From contig WGCV01000033.1 in NCBI GenBank assembly GCA_015493615.1, positions 1 to 63,313 of the forward strand: DNA of 63,313 nt, read 5' to 3'. A model generated the notes under the pieces. It saw only the letters and a program-made list of their open reading frames with translations. It did not search any database and was not told where the DNA came from. Position numbers and translations under genes: made by a program. This document shows, in pieces, positions 6,326-51,823 of the stretch (position 1 is its first letter; every line of letters starts with the position of its first letter). This DNA is from Melioribacteraceae bacterium. Lineage in GTDB: Bacteria > Bacteroidota > Ignavibacteria > Ignavibacteriales > Melioribacteraceae.

Positions 6326-6361
6326 CCGAAAATTTGTTGTCCCGATTTCTTAAGGACATTG

Positions 6362-7459
6362 TTGAAAATTAAATTTATCTTAATGAAAATACATCAAACA
6401 TTAATCGATTTTATTTTAAAAGAATGGCTGGCGGTAGCTTCCGGCACGGGGTTGTTGCTGACTTCAATCTACGTTAAGCATTTTCCCGATTACTCGGCGC
6501 AGGAAATCCAAGTACTGTTTATTTTATTCTTTCTCTTTATTGTCGTTAACGGACTTCAGCAGAGCGGACTGATTTTACAAGTCGCCCGAAAAATAGAGCG
6601 CGGCAAAATGATTCCGTTAAAACTTGTAATGACTACGTTTTTTATTTCAATGATTGTTACAAATGATGTTTCTTTGATTGTAATGGTTCCGCTAACACTT
6701 AGTCTCACGGTTAACAGAAAAGATGTGATTGTTATTCTCGAAGCGCTTGCCGCGAACGCCGGTTCCGCCTTATCGCCGATTGGAAATCCGCAAAACTTAT
6801 TTATTTATTGGTACTACAAAATCGAACCCTTAACTTTCATCCAAACTATTGCCCCTTTTACAATTTTTTTCTTTTTGCTTTTAACCGGAATATCTCTTTT
6901 TCTCAGAACGAAAAAAAGTGTCGCAATAAATAACGGAAAAATTAAAATCAGCGGAAAAGCCTATATTTATTTGGCGTTATTGTTTTTTGTCCTGCTGACG
7001 GTTCTTCGAGTTTTGCCGATTGAGGCGGGAGTTGCGGTTCTTATTTACGCTCTTGTTTTCGACCGAAAAGCGTTATCGATTGATTACGCTCTTCTTCTCG
7101 TTTTCTTTTTCTTCTTTGGACTGACCGATAATCTAAAATTTATTCTTTCCTCTCAAATTTCAAACTCGGGACATATTTTTTTATTCTCCGCGCTGGCAAG
7201 TCAATTTATGAGTAACGTTCCGGCGGCTCTGACGTTCGCAAAGTTTACGCCGAATTGGGAAGCTCTCCTTTGGGGAGTTAACGCCGGCGGTTTCGGAAGT
7301 CTTTTCGGTTCGCTTGCGAATTTAATCGCTTATAAAATTTATGTTTCGCATAGCGGCGAAAAAAACATATCGACTTTTCTGCTGAAATTTTTAATTTTCG
7401 GCTATGCGGCGTTTATTCTTTCAATCGGGTTTTATTTTCTTTACGGAAACGGATTTTGA
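6362..7459 (+). CDS. SLC13/ArsB/NhaD-type ion transporter, inner membrane
   Basis: A hydrophobic protein of about 365 residues with roughly ten membrane segments. It has features of the ion-transporter superfamily holding ArsB, NhaD and SLC13 carriers: TNDVSLIVMVPLTL in the first half, followed by NAGSALSPIGNPQN, where the GNPQN turn is a family signature, and a second inverted-repeat half with SNVPAALTFAK and GANAGG-like GVNAGGFGSLFGSLANL. No ATG is near the domain start. TTG at 6362 is preferred because AAGGA lies 5 bases upstream; ATG at 6383 is the alternative. The transported ion cannot be told from sequence. Confidence 0.75.
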   Translation: MKIKFILMKIHQTLIDFILKEWLAVASGTGLLLTSIYVKHFPDYSAQEIQVLFILFFLFIVVNGLQQSGLILQVARKIERGKMIPLKLVMTTFFISMIVTNDVSLIVMVPLTLSLTVNRKDVIVILEALAANAGSALSPIGNPQNLFIYWYYKIEPLTFIQTIAPFTIFFFLLLTGISLFLRTKKSVAINNGKIKISGKAYIYLALLFFVLLTVLRVLPIEAGVAVLIYALVFDRKALSIDYALLLVFFFFFGLTDNLKFILSSQISNSGHIFLFSALASQFMSNVPAALTFAKFTPNWEALLWGVNAGGFGSLFGSLANLIAYKIYVSHSGEKNISTFLLKFLIFGYAAFILSIGFYFLYGNGF

Positions 7460-7562
7460 TGAACAGAAATTTTAATTAACTCAATCCTGTTTCACAAACA
7501 ACGAAGAAAACCTTTCGCGGGTATATTTGAATAATTTTTTACTTATCTTACAATGTCAGATT

Positions 7563-7594
7563 TTAACACAATTCCGGAAGGTTTGCGGTAGAAA
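7563..7594 (+). repeat. 32-bp direct repeat, left copy, flanking the restriction-modification cassette
   Basis: An exact 32-bp repeat with core 'attccggaaggtttgcggta'. The second copy is at 9643-9674. The right copy sits immediately upstream of the rimO ATG. The two copies bracket exactly the methylase and endonuclease genes, with 2080 bp between equivalent positions. Confidence 0.95.
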
Positions 7595-7617
7595 AAAAAT
7601 TAATAAAATTTATTACG

Positions 7618-8520
7618 ATGGATACAATAACTAAGAAAAAAAGAAAATCATCTTCTATCAATACAATTAAAGGGAAAAAATTAATTGCTTTTGGTTGGTA
7701 CGGCGGCAAATTTTCTCACTTAGATTGGCTATTACCTCTTTTGCCGGAAGCTCATCATTATTGTGAACCTTTTGCGGGATCCGGCGCAGTCCTTTTTAAT
7801 CGAAAACCTTCTCCTGTTGAAACATATAACGATTTAGACGGAGAAGTAGTAAACTTTTTTAAAGTCTTGAGGGAACATAAAAAAGAACTTTTGGAGATGA
7901 TCGCTTTAACTCCGTTTTCGAGAGAAGAATTCGCATTAGCATGTGAAATAAATAGTGATTTGCCTGAGATTGAACGAGCAAGGAGATTTTACGTACGCGC
8001 CAGACAAGTCAGGACAGGCTTAGCGCAGACCGCTTCAATCGGAAGATGGGCAAACTGTAAAAACACAAGTCGCTCCGGGATGAGCGGAGTAATAAGCCGT
8101 TATATTGGAGGTATTGAAAAACTTGAATTTATTGCGGAACGATTATTAAGAGTTCAAATAGAAAACAGACCGGCTATTGAAGTAATTAAATTATATGACA
8201 GTGAAACAACTTTATTCTATTGTGACCCTCCGTATATTCATTCAACACGAGGTGATTCGAATGCTTATGGCTTTGAAATGACGGACGAACAGCATATTGA
8301 ATTAGCCGAAACGTTAAATAATGTAAAAGGGAAAGTCGCAATTTCGAATTACGACTGCGAATTAATGAACAAATTATATCCTCAACCTAAATGGAAAAAA
8401 CATATAGAGACAAGCAAAACTATTCACAGTACAAAAGGCAAACGGCAGGAAGTTTTATGGACCAATTATGATATTAAGAATAATAATGATAATATTTCTT
8501 TATTCAATTTGGATTTTTAA
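7618..8520 (+). CDS. DNA adenine N6-methyltransferase (D12 class), modification enzyme
   Basis: A 300-residue MT-D12 (Dam/DpnM-like) methylase that transfers a methyl group from SAM to adenine N6. SAM-binding motif I is PFAGSG (residues 51-56), preceded by the class motif FGWYGGK (25-31). The catalytic motif is DPPY (203-206, CDPPYIHS). Its partner starts 2 bases after the stop, so it is the protective half of a restriction-modification operon. The pair is visibly richer in A+T and in AGA/ATA codons than the genes around it, which suits recent acquisition. The recognition sequence is not deducible. Confidence 0.92.
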   Translation: MDTITKKKRKSSSINTIKGKKLIAFGWYGGKFSHLDWLLPLLPEAHHYCEPFAGSGAVLFNRKPSPVETYNDLDGEVVNFFKVLREHKKELLEMIALTPFSREEFALACEINSDLPEIERARRFYVRARQVRTGLAQTASIGRWANCKNTSRSGMSGVISRYIGGIEKLEFIAERLLRVQIENRPAIEVIKLYDSETTLFYCDPPYIHSTRGDSNAYGFEMTDEQHIELAETLNNVKGKVAISNYDCELMNKLYPQPKWKKHIETSKTIHSTKGKRQEVLWTNYDIKNNNDNISLFNLDF

Positions 8521-8522
8521 CA

Positions 8523-9638
8523 ATGAATGATCTGATAAAAATATTATTTACTTTTGTCTCTGAAGCAGAAAAAAGTAAAAAACCGTTTATTGACGATAAC
8601 GAAATTATTGAAGACGTTAAAACTGTTTGCGGCAACATTAGAATTAAAGCTCCAATACGTTTTTTGCTTTCTTGCTGTGCCGCCAAAATTGACAATTCGA
8701 ATTACGATATTAGAAAACCATACACTGAAATTTCCGGAAAAGGAACTTTTTCGGGAAGAAGTTATGATGAAAAATTCATTCAAAAAATAATTGGATATTT
8801 TGACTTACCTTGTAACTCTACAACCGCTTTTTTAACGCCGGCATTTAGAAATAGAAATACAATAATGACTCCAGAAACCGTTCTACTCGGAAGAAATCCC
8901 GATTTATATAGAACCGCTCTTAAATTATTAGACTTAGTGAGTAAAGAAACTATAACCCCGGAACAATTATTTAAAGAAATAATACGTCAATTAGTGATAA
9001 TCCGTAATCAAAGTTCAGATAGAATAGAACAATTACTTAAGGGTCTTAAAGGGAATGATAAAGAAAGCTATTTGTCTTCAGAACAAATTGTTACTTTATT
9101 AACTCAACATCTAGCTTCTAAAAATTCCAGCCGATTACCCGTTTTGATTGTTGCCGCCGCTTATTTAACAGTCGGAGAGAAAATTGGAGAAAGAATAAAA
9201 TCTTTACATACTCATAACGCAGCCGATAAACAAACCGGAGCGTTAGGAGATATTGAAGTCGTTCTATCAAATGAAGAAAATGTAGTTACATGCTACGAAA
9301 TGAAAGAAAAACGAGTTACTCAATCCGATGTTGATATTGCTCTTAATAAAATTGTTTCATCCAATATAAAAATAGACAACTACATTTTCATTACAACAGA
9401 ACGCATTGAAAACGACGTTGAAGATTATGCTAAAAGTATTTATGATATTTCCGGTATTGAAATTGCAATTTTAGATTGCCTCGGTTTTATCAAGCACTTT
9501 TTACATTTCTTTCATAGAAAAAGAACGGTTTTTTTAGAAACATATCAAAGACTGGTTTTGTCCGAACCAAATTCGTCAGTAAATCAACCGTTGAAAGAAG
9601 CATTTTTGGCTTTACGACAAGCAATTGAAACCGATTAA
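8523..9638 (+). CDS. Type II restriction endonuclease, SacI-family-like
   Basis: A 371-residue protein directly behind an adenine methylase. I recognise the conserved blocks of the RE_SacI family: AAKIDNSNYDIRKPYTEI, SGRSYDEKFI, LTPAFRNRNT, NSSRLPVLIVAAAY and HNAADKQTGALGD. A PD-(D/E)xK-like core is visible: Asp243 (GALGDIE) and Glu259-x-Lys261 (CYEMKEK). Family membership comes from recalled motifs, not a search. SacI itself cuts GAGCTC; family members need not share that specificity. Length fits an intact gene with no frameshift. Confidence 0.8.
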   Translation: MNDLIKILFTFVSEAEKSKKPFIDDNEIIEDVKTVCGNIRIKAPIRFLLSCCAAKIDNSNYDIRKPYTEISGKGTFSGRSYDEKFIQKIIGYFDLPCNSTTAFLTPAFRNRNTIMTPETVLLGRNPDLYRTALKLLDLVSKETITPEQLFKEIIRQLVIIRNQSSDRIEQLLKGLKGNDKESYLSSEQIVTLLTQHLASKNSSRLPVLIVAAAYLTVGEKIGERIKSLHTHNAADKQTGALGDIEVVLSNEENVVTCYEMKEKRVTQSDVDIALNKIVSSNIKIDNYIFITTERIENDVEDYAKSIYDISGIEIAILDCLGFIKHFLHFFHRKRTVFLETYQRLVLSEPNSSVNQPLKEAFLALRQAIETD

Positions 9639-9642
9639 TAAA

Positions 9643-9674
9643 TTAACACAATTCCGGAAGGTTTGCGGTAGAAA
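9643..9674 (+). repeat. 32-bp direct repeat, right copy
   Basis: Identical to 7563-7594. It ends 3 bases before the rimO ATG at 9678 and contains the probable rimO ribosome-binding region (ggaagg). The ancestral locus probably had one copy as the rimO leader, and the insertion duplicated it. Confidence 0.95.
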
Positions 9675-9677
9675 TAA

Positions 9678-10973
9678 ATGAAAAAAAATAAAATAAATTT
9701 AATTACTCTCGGTTGTTCCAAAAACATTGTCGATTCCGAGAGAATATTGCGTCAGTTGGAAATTAACGAGTTCGACATTGTTAATTCTTCCGAAGAAGCC
9801 GACACCGTTATCATCAACACATGCGGATTTATCGAAGCGGCTAAGGAAGAATCGATAAACACTATTCTTCAAGCTATTGAAGCAAAAAAAGCGGGAAATC
9901 TTGAGAAAGTTCTTGTTGCCGGCTGTCTCTCGGAAAGATACAAAGAAGAACTGAGAGATGAGATTCCCGAAGTGGACGAATATTTCGGAGTTGAAAAATA
10001 TGAAGAAATTGTAACCAATCTCGGAGGAGAATTTAAATACGAGCTTCTCGGCGAGCGGGAACTCACAACTCCGAAACACTACGCTTATCTTAAAATTTCG
10101 GAGGGATGCGACAACCCCTGTTCTTTCTGCGCGATTCCGCTTATTCGCGGGGGATTCCGTTCCAAATCGATTAAAGAATTAACGGCGGAAGCCGAAAGCC
10201 TTGTGGCAAAAGGAGTAAAAGAACTTATTATTATCGGACAGGATACAACCGATTACGGAAAAGATATTTACGGCAAAAGAAATCTGCACGAGCTTCTCCG
10301 CGAGCTTTCCGAGATTGCCGGAATCGAATGGATTCGCCTCCTTTACGCTTATCCTTCTCATTTTCCCGATGAAGTAATTGAAGAAATTGCCCGAAACGGT
10401 AAAGTACTAAATTATCTCGACTTGCCGCTGCAGCACATTTCCGATAATGTGCTTAAGTCGATGCGGCGAGGAATCTCGGCAAAAACAGAGCGCGAGCTTG
10501 TCAATAGAATTCAGCGCGGCATTCCCGGATTAACTTTTCGCACAACTTTTATCGTAGGTTATCCCAACGAGACTGAAGCCGATTTTAACGAGCTTTACGA
10601 ATTTGTTAAAAACTCGGAATTTGACAGGGTGGGCGTTTTTACTTATTCGCAGGAAGATAACACTTACAGCTACGAACTCGGCGACCCTATACCGGAAGAG
10701 GTTAAGGAAGAACGAAAAGATGCGCTGATGGAACTTCAGAAGGAAATCTCGCTGAAGAAAAATAAAGGAATGGTAGGGAAAACTCTCCGCTGTATTGTTG
10801 ACGATATTGAAGGGAAATACTTTGTTGCCCGATCCGAAAAAGACGCTCCGGAAGTGGACGGAAACGTTTTGATTGAACCGGAAGATAACATGCTGAAAAT
10901 CGGAAACTTTTACAACGTGCAAATTGTAGATTTTAATGAATATGATTTATTCGGCAAAATAAAAAAGGCATAA
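9678..10973 (+). CDS. rimO: Ribosomal protein uS12 methylthiotransferase RimO
   Basis: Radical SAM enzyme that adds a methylthio group to the conserved aspartate of ribosomal protein S12. The 431 residues match the family. The N-terminal UPF0004 domain carries the second-cluster cysteines Cys13 (LGCSKN), Cys49 (INTCGF) and Cys83 (AGCLSE). The radical SAM triad is Cys144, Cys148, Cys151 (GCDNPCSFC). A TRAM domain closes the protein. LGCSKN and the S12-type C-terminus favour RimO over MiaB. It heads a four-gene operon with the next three genes (gaps of 3 and 2 bases, then a 20-base overlap). Its leader is one copy of the 32-bp repeat. Confidence 0.95.
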   Translation: MKKNKINLITLGCSKNIVDSERILRQLEINEFDIVNSSEEADTVIINTCGFIEAAKEESINTILQAIEAKKAGNLEKVLVAGCLSERYKEELRDEIPEVDEYFGVEKYEEIVTNLGGEFKYELLGERELTTPKHYAYLKISEGCDNPCSFCAIPLIRGGFRSKSIKELTAEAESLVAKGVKELIIIGQDTTDYGKDIYGKRNLHELLRELSEIAGIEWIRLLYAYPSHFPDEVIEEIARNGKVLNYLDLPLQHISDNVLKSMRRGISAKTERELVNRIQRGIPGLTFRTTFIVGYPNETEADFNELYEFVKNSEFDRVGVFTYSQEDNTYSYELGDPIPEEVKEERKDALMELQKEISLKKNKGMVGKTLRCIVDDIEGKYFVARSEKDAPEVDGNVLIEPEDNMLKIGNFYNVQIVDFNEYDLFGKIKKA

Positions 10974-13240: not shown

Positions 13241-14996
13241 CAAAACGCGTTTTTCTTCCGGATTAAAACTCCTCTTGGTTCTACTGATTTTTCCGGCAAT
13301 AACTCTTTACGCTCAAACAAAAGTAAGTCTTAAAATCTCCGGAGGCAAAAATTTCACGCAGTCCGATTTTAGAAAGTGGGCGAATTTAAGTACTCTGAAT
13401 ATAAAATCAGAATCCGCAGCCGATTCAATAAAAAAAAGAATTATCTTAAACCTTAAAGAAAACGGCTGTTTTTTCCCTTCGGTTAAAATAGATTCGCTCA
13501 AGTTTGACAAAGATTCCGCTTCGGCGCAAATTTACTTGAACGTCAACGAAGGAAAAACCGCTTATCTTACTTCGATTGTTTTAACTGCGCCGGATAGTCT
13601 CGATTCGGCTTTTGTTTATTCACGGTTATCCGAAACGGTCAACGCCGTTTTTATTCCCAAATTGTTCGAAGCCGAGCTAAACGGCATTCTTGACGAATAC
13701 GGCGAACGGGGATTTCCCTTCGCGCAATTCCGGATTCTTAACATTTCTTTTTCGGATAGCGATAAAGTCAGAATTTATCTCAAGTTTGAGCCGGGCGTTC
13801 CCGCCGTAATCGATAAAATTGAAATCTCGGGAAACGACAAGACAAAGGATTACGTTATCGAAAGAAATATCAGAATAAAGCGCGGGGAAAAATACTCCGA
13901 AAGTAAAATTAAGCGGATTCCCGAAGCGCTTAAAAGACTCGACTTTTTCAAATCCGTTAGCAAGCCCGAGTTCTATTTCGATTCCCGAAAACGAGGCGTT
14001 TTGTCCGTCAAGGTGGTTGAAAAATCAACCAATTATTTTGACGGAATTGTCGGCTATATTCCCAAAGCGGGAAAACGGAACGGATATTTTACGGGTTCGG
14101 TTAAAATTAATCTTAGGAATCTTTTCGGTACGGAAAGGGCTTTCGGCTTCAAATGGGAAAAAACAGACGAACGCTCGCAATACTTCGAGGTCGGTTATCT
14201 CGAGCCGTGGATTTTCGGTCTGCCTGTAAATGTTTCTGGAAAGATAACCCAAAAAACGCAGGATACAACTTACATTAAAAGGAATTACTCCCTAAAGTTA
14301 AATTATCTCGCGACCGAAAATCTATCGGCGGGACTGGTTTATTCCTACGGCGAAACAATTCCGACGGGAGACACAAGCAAGTTTACGGTTTATCATTCCT
14401 CTTTTTCAACCAGCGGTTTGGAGTTCCTTTACGATAACCGCGACGATTACTATGTTCCCACAAAGGGATTTTACGTCAGTTTGGGATTCCGTTTCAGCAG
14501 AAAAACAATTCTCGGTCCGGCAAAATTTGTTAGTCCGGGAAAGCCCGGAAATGAAAATTATTTTAAAGGAGAAGCGGCAGCCGGAATTTACCTTTCCCCT
14601 TTCAGTCGGAATGTGATTGCGCTGGCGTTTCATTACAAGGAAATTAAAGGTACAAATTTGGAAGTAAGCGACCTTTACCGATTCGGAGGAACAAATACAT
14701 TGCGCGGATTCAGATTCGAGCAATTTCTCGGAAATAAAATCGGCTGGACAAATTTTGAATACCGGTACCTTTTAAGCGCCGACACTTACGGTTTTTTATT
14801 CCTTGACGGCGGATATTATTACAATTCAATTTTGAAAAATGAGAACAACTCTGACTGCCGGAAACTAACCTACGGTTACGGTTTGGGATTAAATTTTGCA
14901 ACCGGTTTGGGAAACATGAAGATAAGTTTTGCGCTCGGCGAAGGAGATTCTTTTTCAGAGGGGAAAATACATTTTGGAATTGTAAACAGATTTTAA
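13221..14996 (+). CDS. Omp85/BamA-superfamily outer membrane protein with POTRA domains
   Basis: A 591-residue outer membrane protein. After a signal peptide (LLLVLLIFPAITLYAQ) come POTRA-like segments, about residues 35-260 (for example VIDKIEISGNDKTKDYVIERNIRIKRGEKY), and then a beta-barrel of alternating aromatic strands ending in a terminal Phe (GIVNRF), the usual BAM recognition end. The FRFGGTNTLRGF-like segment near 490 (YRFGGTNTLRGFRFEQF) is the Omp85 barrel-loop RGF signature. It is shorter than housekeeping BamA (about 800), so a TamA-like or accessory role is likely. It overlaps the kinase gene, so it is in the rimO operon. Confidence 0.85.
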   Translation: MILRGTDKTRFSSGLKLLLVLLIFPAITLYAQTKVSLKISGGKNFTQSDFRKWANLSTLNIKSESAADSIKKRIILNLKENGCFFPSVKIDSLKFDKDSASAQIYLNVNEGKTAYLTSIVLTAPDSLDSAFVYSRLSETVNAVFIPKLFEAELNGILDEYGERGFPFAQFRILNISFSDSDKVRIYLKFEPGVPAVIDKIEISGNDKTKDYVIERNIRIKRGEKYSESKIKRIPEALKRLDFFKSVSKPEFYFDSRKRGVLSVKVVEKSTNYFDGIVGYIPKAGKRNGYFTGSVKINLRNLFGTERAFGFKWEKTDERSQYFEVGYLEPWIFGLPVNVSGKITQKTQDTTYIKRNYSLKLNYLATENLSAGLVYSYGETIPTGDTSKFTVYHSSFSTSGLEFLYDNRDDYYVPTKGFYVSLGFRFSRKTILGPAKFVSPGKPGNENYFKGEAAAGIYLSPFSRNVIALAFHYKEIKGTNLEVSDLYRFGGTNTLRGFRFEQFLGNKIGWTNFEYRYLLSADTYGFLFLDGGYYYNSILKNENNSDCRKLTYGYGLGLNFATGLGNMKISFALGEGDSFSEGKIHFGIVNRF

Positions 14997-15000
14997 GAGA

Positions 15001-15172
15001 CTTTTGCATAACCTAAATGTGTCATATTGTGTCCGCCAATCCGCCAAGGCGGAGGAGGAGTGGGAGCCGTCCGAAATATCTCTAAATTCGGTACTATTAC
15101 CGGTTTTGAGATTCTTCTCCCGCTCCGCCTTGGCGGAGGATCAGAATGACAAATTTCGGGGTTCTTCAAAGC
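15001..15172. repeat. MITE-like interspersed element, copy A
   Basis: A long copy of a family with terminal inverted repeats (tttgcataacc ... ggttatgcaaa) and an internal short hairpin (tccgccttggcgga). The left end is intact and the right end has drifted (gttcttcaaagc). Other copies: 16534-16682, 45598-45739, 46386-46453, 51729-51823. No open frame of its own. It begins 4 bases after the Omp85 stop codon. Confidence 0.8.
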
Positions 15173-15285
15173 TTTCTTTAAGAACATTACGGCATTGCCC
15201 TAACAAAACCATCCCGGCGCCTGACTTAAACCCAAAATTGTCATTAGAGTATAAATTTCCAGCGCCCCCCAATTATGAATTTAGA

Positions 15286-15391
15286 GCTATGTTTGTTTTT
15301 TCGCAGATTACAAGCAATCTACGCTACAAAAAACGTTTTGTTATTCGAGTTTTTAGATCGAAAAAATTTTTCTAATTACAATTTTAGGGTA
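15286..15391. repeat. Second repeat family ('aatctacgctac' type), copy 1
   Basis: About 100 bp with the core 'caagcaatctacgctacaaa', flanked by tcgcagatt and ttttgttattc. A close copy is at 24247-24335. Core fragments occur near 46590 and, inverted, near 62145. Non-coding. Confidence 0.7.
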
Positions 15392-15706: not shown

Positions 15707-16174
15707 TTAAGTGAATATAATTTCTCCTCCGGCGGACATCTCATAAAATTGCCCGACAGTTATAATGTCGTCAACTTGTTCGCAAAAATCTTCCTTTTTC
15801 AGATGAAACATCTCTACCGTGGCTTTGCATCCGTATATTTCACATCCGGTGTCGTGAATCATTTCTATAAATTCCCGAACCGGAGGGATGTCAAGTTTAT
15901 CCATCTCTTTCTGCATCATTTTAGTTGCCATTGCGCTCATTCCGGGCAATATTCCTAAAAGCGTAGGCATGTGCATACCGGGATTGCCCACGGTTGCCAC
16001 CTTAATTTTATCCATTCTTTTATTAATAACCGCATCCAGACCAAAAAAAGTAAAAAACAGATTTGCTTCAATCCCTTCCATTCTTGCGCCGTTTGCCATA
16101 ATCAGTCCGGGATAAATGCCTTCCAAAGAGCCTTTGGAAATTACAATTGAAACTTTTTTTAATTCTTCTGACAT
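15707..16174 (-). CDS. DsrE/DsrF/DrsH-like sulfur-handling protein (DsrE2 type)
   Basis: A 155-residue protein of the DsrE superfamily, whose members carry sulfane sulfur on cysteine. It has the family pattern of an N-terminal Rossmann-like strand (VSIVISKG), LFFTFFGLDAV, and a Cys-bearing segment GCEIYGCKATVEMF with two Cys near residue 115-120. Long Met-rich helices in the middle (GMHMPTLLGILPGMSAMATKMM) are typical of the membrane-associated DsrE2 subgroup. It is last in a minus-strand operon with DsrC/TusE and an SQR-like flavoprotein, so a role in persulfide transfer is likely. Confidence 0.85.
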   Translation of the reverse strand: MSEELKKVSIVISKGSLEGIYPGLIMANGARMEGIEANLFFTFFGLDAVINKRMDKIKVATVGNPGMHMPTLLGILPGMSAMATKMMQKEMDKLDIPPVREFIEMIHDTGCEIYGCKATVEMFHLKKEDFCEQVDDIITVGQFYEMSAGGEIIFT

Positions 16175-16189
16175 TTTATTTTCTCCTTT

Positions 16190-16504
16190 TTATACACAGG
16201 ATTTCGGTTTAGATAAACCGGCTATTTTAGCCGCTTTTTTGGCGGGTCCGCCGGGGAACAAGGAATAAAGCTCTTTTGTATCTACGCCGCTTTGTTTTGT
16301 CAGTTTTCTGATGGAAGGCGCATCGCCGGTTTCTTCATATACTTTACGCATAAATTCGATTACCTGCCAATGTTTTTCCGTAAGCTCTATTCCTTCGGAT
16401 TTAGCTATCTCGACGGCTACTTCTTTATTCCAGTCAGAAAGGTTTACCAAACAACCGTCGCTATCGACTTCAATTTGTTTTCCAAGAATTTCTACTGTTG
16501 CCAT
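16190..16504 (-). CDS. tusE: TusE/DsrC/DsvC-family sulfur relay protein with a single C-terminal Cys
   Basis: A 104-residue DsrC-family protein: MATVEILGKQIEVD..., NLSDWNKEVAVEIAK, LTEKHWQVIEFMR, SIRKLTK, SLFPGGPAKKAAKIAGLSKP and Cys at the penultimate position (103). True DsrC has a second Cys 11 residues earlier (ACKIAG); here that position, 92, is Ala. It is therefore TusE-like and should not form the DsrC trisulfide. The ATG at 16504 is chosen because AGGAGA lies 8 bases upstream; the open frame continues to 16684 only because it reads into the repeat element. Fourth gene of the sulfur operon. Confidence 0.9.
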   Translation of the reverse strand: MATVEILGKQIEVDSDGCLVNLSDWNKEVAVEIAKSEGIELTEKHWQVIEFMRKVYEETGDAPSIRKLTKQSGVDTKELYSLFPGGPAKKAAKIAGLSKPKSCV

Positions 16505-16533
16505 TTTTATTTCTCCTATTTTTCTTCTAGTAA

Positions 16534-16682
16534 CCTTTGCATAACCTAAATTTGTCATATTGAGGACGGTGGAAGCCGTCCGAAATATCTCTAAATTCGG
16601 TGTAATTACCAGTTTTGAGATTCTTCTCCCGCTCCGCCGTGGCGGAGGATCAGAATGACAAATAAATTGGGTTATGCAAAGC
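16534..16682. repeat. MITE-like interspersed element, copy B, inside the sulfur operon
   Basis: The best-preserved copy, 149 bp. The ends are cctttgcataacc and gggttatgcaaagc, near-perfect inverted repeats. The internal tccgccgtggcgga hairpin is present. It separates DUF1641 from tusE in an otherwise tightly packed operon. Confidence 0.85.
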
Positions 16683-16688
16683 ATTCTT

Positions 16689-17348
16689 CTATATGTTTTG
16701 TGAAAACGTTTTTAATATTTTAAGAGTCATCGCCAAGCCGCGCTTTGTTTCTTTTGAATTTAACTCTTTCATTAAATCAAACATTGAAACATTTTTATCA
16801 ATATTTATATTTTTAATTGTAGAAAGCGTTGTATTTATTTTTTCCAGTATTTCAGGGTCGGTAAGATTTTTTAAGGTTCGCACAATTAAAGCTGAATTAT
16901 CGGCAAGCGCTTTAACATCGTCAACGGCAAATGTTGTAACAACATTATCCAAAGCGCGGTTCAATTCCCTTATAAAATCAAAATACCCTTTTCTGTCAAA
17001 CTCATCCAGTTTGTTCATAGTATCTATTGAAAGTTGACGAGAAATAGGACCGAAGTCCTGGACGAACCCTCTGATACTTTCAATTTGTTCAAGCGATTTA
17101 GAAATATTATTTACGTTCCTCAACAACTTTTTGAAAAGGAAAAGAATATCTCCCGTTTGAATACTGTCGTGAACTTCTTCCAACTCGTCCACGGCGGTTT
17201 CATAAACGTCCTTTCCGACTCGCATTAAATCGTCTTTTAAATCTTCGCTTTCCCTTCTGTTTTTTTTCTGAAGTTCTATTTCCTCAAGAATAATATCCAG
17301 CTTGGAATTTATCGTATTAATCTGTTCTTGAATATTTTTTTCTTCCAT
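16689..17348 (-). CDS. DUF1641 domain protein
   Basis: A 219-residue soluble, mostly helical protein with a coiled-coil-like N-terminus (residues 1-45, rich in Glu, Lys and Ile/Leu heptads) and a DUF1641-type C-terminal half (FDFIRELNRALDNV, LKNLTDPEILEKINTTL, MFDLMKELNSKETKRGLAMTLKILK). The family is often next to SQR-like flavoproteins or formate dehydrogenase accessory genes; its function is unknown. Start is 2 bases after the SQR-like stop, so it is in the same transcript. Confidence 0.8.
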   Translation of the reverse strand: MEEKNIQEQINTINSKLDIILEEIELQKKNRRESEDLKDDLMRVGKDVYETAVDELEEVHDSIQTGDILFLFKKLLRNVNNISKSLEQIESIRGFVQDFGPISRQLSIDTMNKLDEFDRKGYFDFIRELNRALDNVVTTFAVDDVKALADNSALIVRTLKNLTDPEILEKINTTLSTIKNINIDKNVSMFDLMKELNSKETKRGLAMTLKILKTFSQNI

Positions 17349-17350
17349 TG

Positions 17351-18580
17351 TTATACCCTCTTACCTGCCATTGTCATATGCGATTCGATCGGAAGTTCCA
17401 AACCTTTAAGCAGCTGGTTCCAATACATCCAACGAAACATTATTTTTCCGTAATGATTCATTTTAGTTTCTTCGAGTAATGAAAAGGGTCCTATTCCGGG
17501 AAGCGGAAATTTTCCGGGCAACGGCTCTGTCGTATAGTTAAAATCGATCAAAACGCCCTTACCGAAACCGCTTTCGATAAAGCAATTGGCGTGTCCGTCG
17601 AATTTTGCTCGGGGCTTTCTTCCATCAATAACATCCAGAAAATTTTCCGTTAAGATTTCCGATTCAAAATGAGCGACCGAGCCGGCTTTTGAACTTGGCA
17701 AGTTTGTCGCGTCGCCAATTACGAAAATATTATCGTAACCTTCAGCCATCAATGTTTCTTTATCTGTTGGGACAAAGTTAAGTTCGTCTCCTAGACCGCT
17801 TCTTGCAATCACTTCATCGCCCATGTTAGTCGGTATTGAAACCAGAACGTCAAAGTTAACCTCTTTTTCGTCCCACGAAATTATCTTTTTATTCTCGTTG
17901 TCAACTTTGGCAATCGAAAAATCGGGAATAAGATTAATGTTTTTCTTTTCAAGAAAATCACCCAGCACGGACGAAGCGCGAGGTTTTGTAAACGCTCCCG
18001 ACAAAGGAGTAACAAAATGTATATTCACCTTGTCGCGAATTCCTCTTTCGGTAAAATACCAGTCCGCTAGAAAAACAAACTCAAGCGGAGCAACGGGACA
18101 TTTTATCGGCATCTCGGCAATATTTAAAACCATATCGCCACCTTCCCAATATTTAAAATAATTTGCCAAAGCAAGCGCGCCTTCAATTGTGTAAAAATCG
18201 AATACTTCTTTATGCCACAATTTACCTTTTAATCCTTCCGTTTCCTCCGGATTAATTTTTGTTCCGGTTGCAATTATTAAATAGTCATAAGGCAAAACCG
18301 AGCCGTTTTCCAGCAGGACTCTGTTTTTATCCGCCTCTATTTTTGAAATTTGAGACATAACAACATCAACGCCATTTGGGAAAAAATCCCGCTTTGGTTT
18401 TATCACATCTTTCTTATTGTAAATACCAAATGGAATAAAAAGGAATCCCGGTTGATAATAATGAGTTTCGTACATATCAACTATTGTAATATTCCATTCA
18501 CTCTTATCCAGGATGCCCCTTAGTTTGTTTAACATTAAGGTTCCGGCTGTTCCGGCGCCTAGAATAACTAATTTTTTCAT
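17351..18580 (-). CDS. Sulfide:quinone oxidoreductase-like FAD/NAD(P)-binding protein
   Basis: A 409-residue flavoprotein. The N-terminal FAD dinucleotide motif is LVILGAGTAG. Other landmarks are DYLIIATGTKINPEE, KCPVAPLEFVFLADWYF with Cys161, FVIGDATNLPSSKAGSVAHFE and GHANCFIES with Cys333. Only these two Cys are present; classical SQR uses three. The Cys161 region (CPVAP) is that of the persulfide-forming Cys in SQR and flavocytochrome c. It probably oxidises sulfide or another low-molecular-weight persulfide at the membrane. The amphipathic C-terminus (KIMFRWMYWNQLLKGLELP) would anchor it. Second gene of the operon, 6 bases after the MerR-type gene. Confidence 0.85.
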   Translation of the reverse strand: MKKLVILGAGTAGTLMLNKLRGILDKSEWNITIVDMYETHYYQPGFLFIPFGIYNKKDVIKPKRDFFPNGVDVVMSQISKIEADKNRVLLENGSVLPYDYLIIATGTKINPEETEGLKGKLWHKEVFDFYTIEGALALANYFKYWEGGDMVLNIAEMPIKCPVAPLEFVFLADWYFTERGIRDKVNIHFVTPLSGAFTKPRASSVLGDFLEKKNINLIPDFSIAKVDNENKKIISWDEKEVNFDVLVSIPTNMGDEVIARSGLGDELNFVPTDKETLMAEGYDNIFVIGDATNLPSSKAGSVAHFESEILTENFLDVIDGRKPRAKFDGHANCFIESGFGKGVLIDFNYTTEPLPGKFPLPGIGPFSLLEETKMNHYGKIMFRWMYWNQLLKGLELPIESHMTMAGKRV

Positions 18581-18586
18581 ATCGTT

Positions 18587-19021
18587 TTATCCTTTATTTG
18601 GGGGTAAAAGTTCTTTGAGTTTATCTTTGATTGAACCGCAGTGCATAAATGACTGGTAAACTTCACATTCTCTGCAATCACGGTCTCTGCATGTATTGTT
18701 TTTATGTTCAAAAACCCAGCAGGGTTTTGAGTAACTTACAAACGCCTGACAATTTTCCCTGTCTTTTTCGGTGCATTTAATGATAGCCCAACAGGGAATA
18801 AGGGAAAGAACCCGGCGAATTGCTTCAAGTCCGAGTTTGTGTTCATTGATTGTTTCGCGGATACAACGAATTCTGTCAATGTCCCTGTCGCTGTATCTTC
18901 TTTGGTTGCTCTCTTTTTTAAAAGGAATGATTAGTCCTTCGCGTTCATACATTCTTAATGTGTGAATTGATATTCCGGATAATTCCGCTGCGACGCTGAT
19001 TGTGTATTTTGGTTTGTCCAT
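18587..19021 (-). CDS. HspR-like MerR-family regulator with Cys-rich two-CW-like domain
   Basis: A 144-residue regulator. Residues 7-75 are a MerR winged helix very like HspR (YTISVAAELSGISIHTLRMY, then NQRRYSDRDIDRIRCI). The remainder has eight Cys (77, 83, 91, 101, 111, 116, 119, 128), including two CW pairs (77-78, 101-102) and CRDRDCREC, which resembles the two-CW domain. This part probably binds a metal or iron-sulfur cluster or senses sulfane sulfur (inference). It is the first gene of the sulfur operon, with a dyad 16 bases upstream of its ATG, so it is likely autoregulated and controls the operon. Confidence 0.82.
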   Translation of the reverse strand: MDKPKYTISVAAELSGISIHTLRMYEREGLIIPFKKESNQRRYSDRDIDRIRCIRETINEHKLGLEAIRRVLSLIPCWAIIKCTEKDRENCQAFVSYSKPCWVFEHKNNTCRDRDCRECEVYQSFMHCGSIKDKLKELLPPNKG

Positions 19022-46342: not shown

Positions 46343-46378
46343 AAAGGGAATGAAAGTAACTTTTCATTCCCTTTTTTT
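46343..46378 (+). terminator. Rho-independent terminator
   Basis: aaagggaatgaaa (46343-46355) pairs perfectly with tttcattcccttt (46362-46374), then a T run. Marks the end of the metal island. Confidence 0.95.
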
Positions 46379-46385
46379 CTTGAAA

Positions 46386-46453
46386 CCTTTGCATAATCTA
46401 TAATTGTCATATTGAGTCCGCCCTGGCGGAGGATCGGAATAACAAATTTAGGT
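46386..46453. repeat. MITE-like interspersed element, copy D (truncated)
   Basis: Left end cctttgcataatc and the central tccgccctggcgga hairpin are kept; the right inverted repeat is missing. Confidence 0.65.
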
Positions 46454-51530: not shown

Positions 51531-51753
51531 TTACCTCAACAGAAGCTGTAATAATTTCTTGAGCAAAGTAATCTTCTCTCTCTTCCGGGGATAAAACTTC
51601 AAGATATAACTCAACAGCTTCTTTAATATTTTCTATAGTTTCGTCAAGAGTATCGCCTTGAGAGTGACAACCTGTTAAATCCGGACAAAACGCATAATAT
51701 CCGTTTTTATCCTTTTCAATAATAGAGACCTTTGCACAACCTAAATTTGTCAT
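51520..51753 (-). CDS. hicB: HicB-family antitoxin with 5' end replaced by a repeat element
   Basis: The C-terminal 70 residues are a normal HicB: VSIIEKDKNGYYAFCPDLTG, CHSQGDTLDETIENIKEAVE and LYLEVLSPEEREDYF. Its native first few codons are missing; the MITE-like element at 51729-51823 joins at that point. An ATG at 51753 inside the element is in frame and gives MTNLGCAK as a new N-terminus (77 residues in all). HicB should bind the HicA toxin and its own promoter, but its promoter is now also replaced. Confidence 0.7.
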   Translation of the reverse strand: MTNLGCAKVSIIEKDKNGYYAFCPDLTGCHSQGDTLDETIENIKEAVELYLEVLSPEEREDYFAQEIITASVEVNVA

Positions 51754-51823
51754 ATTGAGTCCGTCAATCCGCCAATCCGCCAAAGCGGGATCAGAATGAC
51801 ATTTTACGGGGTTATGCAAAGCC
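51729..51823. repeat. MITE-like interspersed element, copy E, at the hicB 5' end
   Basis: A short copy, 95 bp. Ends cctttgcacaacc and ggttatgcaaagcc. Internal hairpin shortened (ccgccaaagcggg). Confidence 0.8.

What the first reader, a model, noticed from the sequence alone, without database searches (positions are those of the whole stretch)
7563..9674. Restriction-modification cassette bracketed by perfect 32-bp direct repeats, right copy forming the rimO leader
The repeats are identical and enclose exactly the methylase and endonuclease genes, with almost nothing else. No transposase, integrase or tRNA is present. Restriction-modification genes are known to insert with long target duplications; this has the form of such an event. 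The age appears small because the repeats have not diverged.
Basis: partly seen in the sequence, partly recalled or inferred. Interest (0 to 1): 0.62.

Follow-up and report, generated by a model that had tools for sequence, protein, structure and literature searches.

The report
Restriction-modification cassette duplicating rimO leader
Two DNA-defence genes sit between the likely promoter of a housekeeping gene (rimO) and the gene itself, with the 32-base leader copied on both sides, and a sister species shows the same place without the insert.

Summary
Perfect 32-bp direct repeats (7563-7594, 9643-9674) occur only there in the host genome and enclose a D12-class methyltransferase and a SacI-family endonuclease. 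This fits insertion with a 32-bp target duplication.

The duplicated piece looks like the rimO leader: it begins about where a conserved promoter-like site would start transcription and ends 3 bp before the ATG. A related cassette in class-mate G296 also lies between direct repeats (52 bp, 94%); 6 of 8 loci examined show none.

Recent age is not supported. The leader is constrained (61 of 61 bases identical to the sister; fourfold sites differ by 21%). The SacI site GAGCTC is about tenfold avoided in this genome and in the cassette-less sister, less so in two congeners sampled thinly, so loss in the sister stays open.

New member of a known kind (insertion with long target duplication); what makes the duplication is inferred.

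The parts
7563..7594 (+). left copy of the 32-bp direct repeat (rimO leader, now ahead of the methyltransferase gene)
   Evidence: left flank continuous with the single copy of L034
9643..9674 (+). right copy of the 32-bp direct repeat, leader of rimO
   Evidence: right flank continuous with the single copy of L034
7618..8520 (+). M: D12-class N6-adenine DNA methyltransferase, 300 aa
   Evidence: PF02086 2.1e-27; PADLOC MTase_II 9.4e-60; below the NCBIfam dam cut-off (86.2 of 114.85 bits); CDPPY and F-x-GS invariant in 7 aligned sequences, window included
8523..9638 (+). R: SacI-family restriction endonuclease, 371 aa, with invariant D243, E245, E259, K261 (GD-x-E ... E-x-K)
   Evidence: PF09566 1.1e-6, above cut-off; invariant residues in 7 aligned sequences, window included; no NCBIfam, PADLOC or solved-structure match
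9678..10973 (+). rimO, ribosomal protein S12 methylthiotransferase
   Evidence: TIGR01125 4.2e-156
7528..7562 (+). left flank outside the repeat, identical to the region upstream of rimO in the cassette-free sister; with 7563-7588 it makes 61 identical bases
7527..7554 (+). promoter-like site TTGAAT-16-TACAAT (candidate rimO promoter, now ahead of M-R-rimO)
   Evidence: consensus hits in the region not above chance: 13 found, 9.4 expected, sd 3.3; support is its conservation in L034, where the first hexamer reads CTGAAT
7595..7617 (+). 23-bp inner left junction between repeat and M start codon
   Evidence: weak similarity to the first codons of rimO not significant
9639..9642 (+). 4-bp inner right junction between R stop codon and right repeat

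Best explanation
A foreign two-gene Type II restriction-modification cassette (adenine methyltransferase then SacI-family endonuclease) became inserted in the leader of rimO with a 32-bp target duplication. Shown: an occupied/empty pair with exact junctions; the repeat unique in the genome; foreign codon composition; no mobility gene in the cassette and no terminal inverted repeat. Inferred: M and R, and at least partly rimO behind them, are transcribed from the original rimO promoter, because the repeat equals the predicted transcribed leader. The insert therefore splits promoter from gene yet leaves a leader copy before both M and rimO. The duplication most likely arose without an encoded transposase: the cassette was captured at a staggered break or gap of about 32 nt in the leader, and the gaps were filled in, in the manner of the 'insertion with long target duplication' described for other restriction-modification genes. 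Recombination between the two copies could remove the cassette cleanly and restore the promoter-leader-rimO order.
For: Empty site: joining the window flanks through one repeat gives the L034 sequence, 61/61 bases identical across the left junction and leader, and continuous into rimO. Repeat unique in genome; no second copy of the cassette. R not found in the 96 other relatives searched; M and PF09566 not found in the four congeners. Third-position G+C 0.29 (M) and 0.22 (R) against 0.40-0.50 in six neighbours. Relatives of the pair also lie on Nostoc, Calothrix, Aeromonas and Comamonas plasmids. A related cassette (R 56% identical) in G296 lies between 52-bp, 94% direct repeats found nowhere else in that draft genome, the right copy ahead of a nucleotidyltransferase gene.
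Against: Only one occupied/empty pair. The G296 case has no empty relative among 58 other genomes, its repeats are imperfect, and they lie about 130-145 bp before the genes rather than directly before them. 6 of 8 loci of the cassette family examined have no exact flanking repeat of 16 bp or more within about 2.5 kb, so the duplication is not a constant feature. A promoter-like site (TTGAAA-16-CACAAT, 9625-9652) overlaps the right repeat and others lie in the cassette, and one + strand terminator-like site lies in M (7772-7789), all at chance level; so rimO may have its own start, and transcription is not measured. Avoidance of GAGCTC in the sister suggests the system may be older than the split, making L034 possibly a derived (excised) state. 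G004 is 85% complete and many of its short contigs are masked, so a cassette elsewhere in it is not excluded. The genomes compared are draft assemblies.
Confidence: 0.68

Rival explanations
1. The cassette was inserted in the common ancestor of G000 and G004 and later lost cleanly in G004 by recombination between the 32-bp repeats, so that the empty site is derived. The original event is still an insertion with duplication; only the direction of the last change differs.
For: GAGCTC, the SacI site (recalled), is avoided about tenfold in both G000 (40 observed, about 371 expected) and the cassette-less G004 (32, about 342), against ratios 0.65 and 0.47 in two congeners. PMC4687349 (abstract and passages seen) reports that avoidance without the system can be the trace of a lost one. 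The leader is constrained, so identical repeats do not demand youth.
Against: The specificity of this endonuclease is not known; another GAGCTC system could have left the trace. GTCGAC and GTATAC are equally avoided in the G000 sample. The congener ratios rest on samples with only 2.4 and 2.1 expected sites, and in G003 the reversed control CTCGAG is as low (0.54) as GAGCTC (0.47). Cassette composition is far from ameliorated. The G004 expectation rests on 10 unmasked of 30 stretches.
Confidence: 0.4
2. Campbell-type integration: a circular molecule carrying M, R and a 32-bp stretch identical to the rimO leader recombined with the chromosome, by homologous recombination or by a recombinase acting in trans.
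For: Would give the same product (two direct repeats, exact empty site).
Against: The 32 bp occur nowhere else in the genome; no recombinase among the 14 window proteins scanned; the repeat is the host's own constrained leader, so a donor would have to carry it already. Repeats at the G296 cassette have a different sequence.
Confidence: 0.2
3. Ordinary transposition by a transposase in trans with a 32-bp target-site duplication.
For: Direct repeats flank the unit.
Against: No terminal inverted repeats: the longest exact inverted match between the two end regions is 9 bp, against longest direct matches averaging 8.8 in shuffled regions; the longest imperfect pair listed (7578-7614 with 9692-9728, 70% complementary) does not coincide with the cassette ends. 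Length and sequence of the repeats differ between this cassette and its G296 relative (32 bp perfect, 52 bp at 94%).
Confidence: 0.07
4. Assembly artefact or chance repeat.
For: The genomes compared are draft assemblies; a shared 32-mer can misjoin contigs.
Against: Expected chance matches 0. A misjoin would still need real molecules in which the leader abuts M and R abuts the leader.
Confidence: 0.03

Closest known systems
Insertion with long target duplication of restriction-modification genes (Nobusato et al. 2000, Gene 259:99; Furuta et al. 2010, NAR 38:2428; neither was read; known here from passages of PMC3874152, PMC3031569, PMC1643837, PMC4978471)
   Same: Restriction-modification unit flanked by direct repeats of the target, one copy in a relative without the unit, moving unlinked to a known mobile element.
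   Different: The duplication is 32 bp rather than 'in the order of 100 bp' (PMC3874152 passage), and it looks like the leader of the downstream gene; the host is of the Melioribacteraceae; the endonuclease is of the SacI family.
Restriction-modification units with short target duplication and imperfect terminal inverted repeats (described in a passage of PMC3874152)
   Same: A mobile restriction-modification unit without a linked mobility gene.
   Different: No terminal inverted repeats found here.
SacI-family restriction-modification pairs on Nostoc, Calothrix, Aeromonas and Comamonas plasmids (L121-L125)
   Same: Same gene pair and order; for L121-L124 R is 50-53% and M 63-64% identical; L125 has the same protein accessions as L124.
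   Different: Plasmid-borne, no exact flanking direct repeats of 16 bp or more within about 2.5 kb.

Membership tests
insertion with long target duplication (restriction-modification) | restriction-modification genes bracketed by direct repeats | tested here: met
   32/32 identical, unique in the genome
insertion with long target duplication (restriction-modification) | related genome with a single repeat copy and no insert, flanks continuous | tested here: met
   L034/G004
insertion with long target duplication (restriction-modification) | no linked transposase/integrase and no terminal inverted repeats | tested here: met
   (14 window proteins scanned, not all)
insertion with long target duplication (restriction-modification) | duplication long (about 100 bp in the review passage seen) | tested here: inconclusive
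   32 bp; possible extension into rimO codons not significant (102 of 2000 shuffles, 10 of 216 controls as good)
Type II restriction-modification system, SacI family | SacI-family endonuclease beside a DNA methyltransferase | tested here: met
   PF09566 29.2 bits, cut-off 19.3; PF02086 96.9 bits, cut-off 22
Type II restriction-modification system, SacI family | recognition of GAGCTC (site recalled) | tested here: inconclusive
   GAGCTC 40 observed against about 371 expected in G000, but equally avoided in cassette-less G004
Type II restriction-modification system, SacI family | enzymatic activity of R and M | not testable with these tools
   only conserved residues seen
transposon with terminal inverted repeats | inverted repeats at the ends | tested here: not met
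   longest exact inverted match 9 bp, at shuffle level

The most novel reading that the evidence does not exclude
SacI-family M-R pairs are minimal, transposase-free mobile units that settle in gene leaders. By duplicating the leader they take over the host promoter while leaving the downstream gene a leader of its own, and the same repeats allow clean, scarless excision. G000/G004 and the independent G296 cassette would then be two instances of one leader-duplicating insertion route.
Probability: 0.2. Interest if true: 0.65.

Novelty: new member of a known kind. Interest (0 to 1): 0.42.

Why it matters
How restriction-modification genes move without a transposase is an old open question. This gives a compact occupied/empty pair with exact junctions and a functional reading of the target duplication: the copied segment looks like the leader, so the insertion is tolerated and the cassette gains a promoter. 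The shared avoidance of the SacI site in a sister without the cassette also offers a way to ask whether clean excision through the repeats really happens.

Tried and rejected
Longer original duplication: the 23 bp after the left repeat resemble the first codons of rimO, but 102 of 2000 dinucleotide shuffles and 10 of 216 AT-matched controls score as well; not claimed. Terminal inverted repeats: none. RNA family in the region 7400-9900: no match reached a family's gathering score; two weak hits, neither in the repeats. A phage or viral carrier of R: no match in phages; 10 pattern stretches but no relative in viral contigs, a search for close relatives only. A second copy of the cassette in the genome: none. 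An empty site for the G296 cassette: none in 58 other genomes, 9 of which gave only matches of about 25-40 bases. Solved structure for R: none.

Avoidance figures: those for G004, G001 and G003 were wrong because some stretches read only N; they were repeated without them (20 of 30 G004 stretches, 1 of 4 for G001 and 1 of 4 for G003 dropped as masked). Whether the whole-genome counts include masked contigs is unknown. Raw counts GAGCTC: CTCGAG are G000 40:234, G004 32:130, G001 77:168, G003 51:143, G002 50:86. Ratios of observed to expected for the control CTCGAG are 0.86, 0.59, 1.07 and 0.54 for G000, G004, G001 and G003. The Fisher tests (G004 against three congeners p = 0.006; G000 against them p = 1.6e-7; G000 against G004 p = 0.18) use raw counts and ignore shared ancestry. 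G002 has no expectation because no stretch was sampled.

Papers: Nobusato 2000 was not looked up and Furuta 2010 is not held. Of PMC3031569, PMC3874152, PMC1643837, PMC4978471, PMC2614495, PMC12707154 and PMC4687349 I saw only passages found by term; in PMC2614495 and PMC12707154 only reference-list lines. The listings (titles and abstract starts) show no paper on this arrangement in Melioribacter; 'Ignavibacteria' was not a search term, and most subscription journals are not held.

Full report
WHAT IS THERE. The window lies in a 3.15-Mb draft genome (67 contigs, 96.8% complete); the best rimO match in named genomes is a Melioribacteraceae bacterium. The 32-bp sequence at 7563-7594 recurs without a mismatch at 9643-9674. 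Allowing three mismatches, no further copy exists in the window (none expected) or in the genome. Between the copies are 23 bp, a 300-aa D12-class adenine methyltransferase gene, 2 bp, a 371-aa SacI-family endonuclease gene and 4 bp. The right copy ends 3 bp before the ATG of rimO. CDPPY and F-x-GS in M, and GD-x-E ... E-x-K in R, are invariant in the seven sequences aligned for each, window included; that these are catalytic motifs is recalled. The cassette is G+C-poor at third positions (0.29 and 0.22, against 0.40-0.50 in six neighbouring genes).

THE EMPTY SITE. Of 58 genomes searched with the rimO region, 53 match, this genome included. One congener, G004, is 94% identical over the region and starts matching exactly at the right repeat; its contig number and coordinates agree with L034 (JALWEC010000446.1). 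Reading L034 upstream, one copy of the leader follows the same left flank as the window's left copy and runs straight into rimO. Joining the window flanks through a single copy reproduces L034: 61 of 61 bases identical from 7528 through the first 26 bases of the repeat, then 2 differences in the last 6 bases of the repeat and 1 in the 3 bases before the ATG, then rimO. In 24 other loci whose upstream region was printed, G001 and G003 among them, I see no copy of the leader by eye, so L034 is the only empty site. The endonuclease was not found in 96 other relatives. In overlapping draws it occurs in 7 of 293 other genomes of the class at E<=0.001 and 1 of 394 others of the phylum at E<=1e-20. 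The methyltransferase and PF09566 were not found in the four congeners, two of which are 77% and 85% complete.

WHAT THE DUPLICATED PIECE IS. A promoter-like pair TTGAAT-16-TACAAT at 7527-7554 precedes the left repeat. Such pairs are not more frequent here than by chance (13 found, 9.4 expected), but this one is conserved in L034 apart from one base. A start about 7 bases downstream, near 7561, would make the repeat the transcribed leader. While rimO differs at 35 of 166 fourfold sites, the 61 bases are unchanged, so the segment appears to be under selection. The cassette has thus separated promoter and gene by 2,080 bp, put the rimO promoter and leader before M, and left a leader copy before rimO. 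No terminator-like site lies between R and rimO, so read-through into rimO is likely. Against sole dependence on it, a promoter-like pair at 9625-9652 overlaps the right repeat, and a + strand terminator-like site lies inside M at 7772-7789 (both kinds at chance frequency).

A SECOND CASE. The related cassette in G296 (same class, another family; R 56% identical) lies between direct repeats of 52 bp at 94%, followed by a more diverged collinear stretch (46 of 60 identical). These repeats were found twice in that 77% complete genome and are unlike the rimO leader. The left copy ends about 130 bp before M, and the right copy about 145 bp before the next gene, a nucleotidyltransferase. No relative with an empty site was found in 58 other genomes. 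Five plasmid loci (L124 and L125 with identical flank matches) and G123 have no exact flanking repeat of 16 bp or more within about 2.5 kb. So 2 of the 8 loci examined, the window included, show it.

AGE AND DIRECTION. Identical repeats were read as youth. At the fourfold rate, zero differences would have probability 0.0004 for an insertion as old as the split; at the leader's own rate (2 of 32) it is 0.135. The leader is constrained, so I take the second figure as the fairer one. GAGCTC, the SacI site (recalled), is counted 40 times in G000 and 32 in G004, against about 371 and 342 expected from 5-mer and 4-mer counts in sampled stretches (ratios 0.11 and 0.09; 19.3 and 9.9 sites expected in the samples). 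Congeners G001 and G003 give 0.65 and 0.47, but from samples with only 2.4 and 2.1 expected sites, and in G003 the reversed control CTCGAG is as low (0.54). GTCGAC and GTATAC are as strongly avoided in the G000 sample. If the avoidance is the mark of this system, it acted before G000 and G004 split, and G004 lost it, perhaps by recombination between the repeats. Avoidance without the system as a trace of loss has been described (PMC4687349, abstract and passages). I leave gain and loss open, about 60 to 40.

MECHANISM. What is shown is an insertion allele with an exact 32-bp duplication, no mobility gene in the cassette, no tRNA and no terminal inverted repeat. The making of the duplication is inferred: capture at a staggered break or gap with fill-in is most likely to me; integration of a circle carrying the same 32 bp is possible; a transposase in trans is unlikely. 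[quoted passage not shown]). PMC3874152 gives lengths in the order of 100 bp, and a second class with short duplications and inverted repeats. At 32 bp without inverted repeats I place the present case nearer the first class.

VERDICT. It is a new member of a known kind, with an instructive detail (leader duplication) that may recur in one related cassette.

Noticed in passing
L132 (G364) about 1399-1710: A relic of the same gene pair: the first codons of an M-like gene run into the last 68 codons of R (69% identical), as after an internal deletion that removed most of both genes (the M part was read by eye).
   Followed up: partly
genome G000, 163-kb sample: GTCGAC (1 observed, 12.4 expected) and GTATAC (1, 8.9) are as strongly avoided as GAGCTC (2, 19.3), suggesting other present or past restriction systems.
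   Followed up: no
window 14976-15154, 16509-16663, 46361-46420, 51704-51763: A dispersed repeat family (60-95 nt, up to 94% identical); a nearby window piece at 15278-15388 is similar to L034 1626-1735.
   Followed up: no
G000:C27:601-1425: A second D12-class methyltransferase relative (34% identical) with one in-frame stop, near a contig end.
   Followed up: no
window 6359-7527 against L034 1-2338: Upstream of the conserved promoter stretch the two species show no alignment to each other: a citrate-transporter-family gene precedes rimO in the window, not in L034.
   Followed up: partly
window 15707-19021, minus strand: DsrE-like, DsrC-like, DUF1641, pyridine-nucleotide oxidoreductase and MerR-type genes in a row.
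   Followed up: no
L124, L125: The same gene pair sits on small mobilizable Aeromonas and Comamonas plasmids; the Aeromonas stretch also holds a class 1 integron integrase and resistance genes.
   Followed up: no
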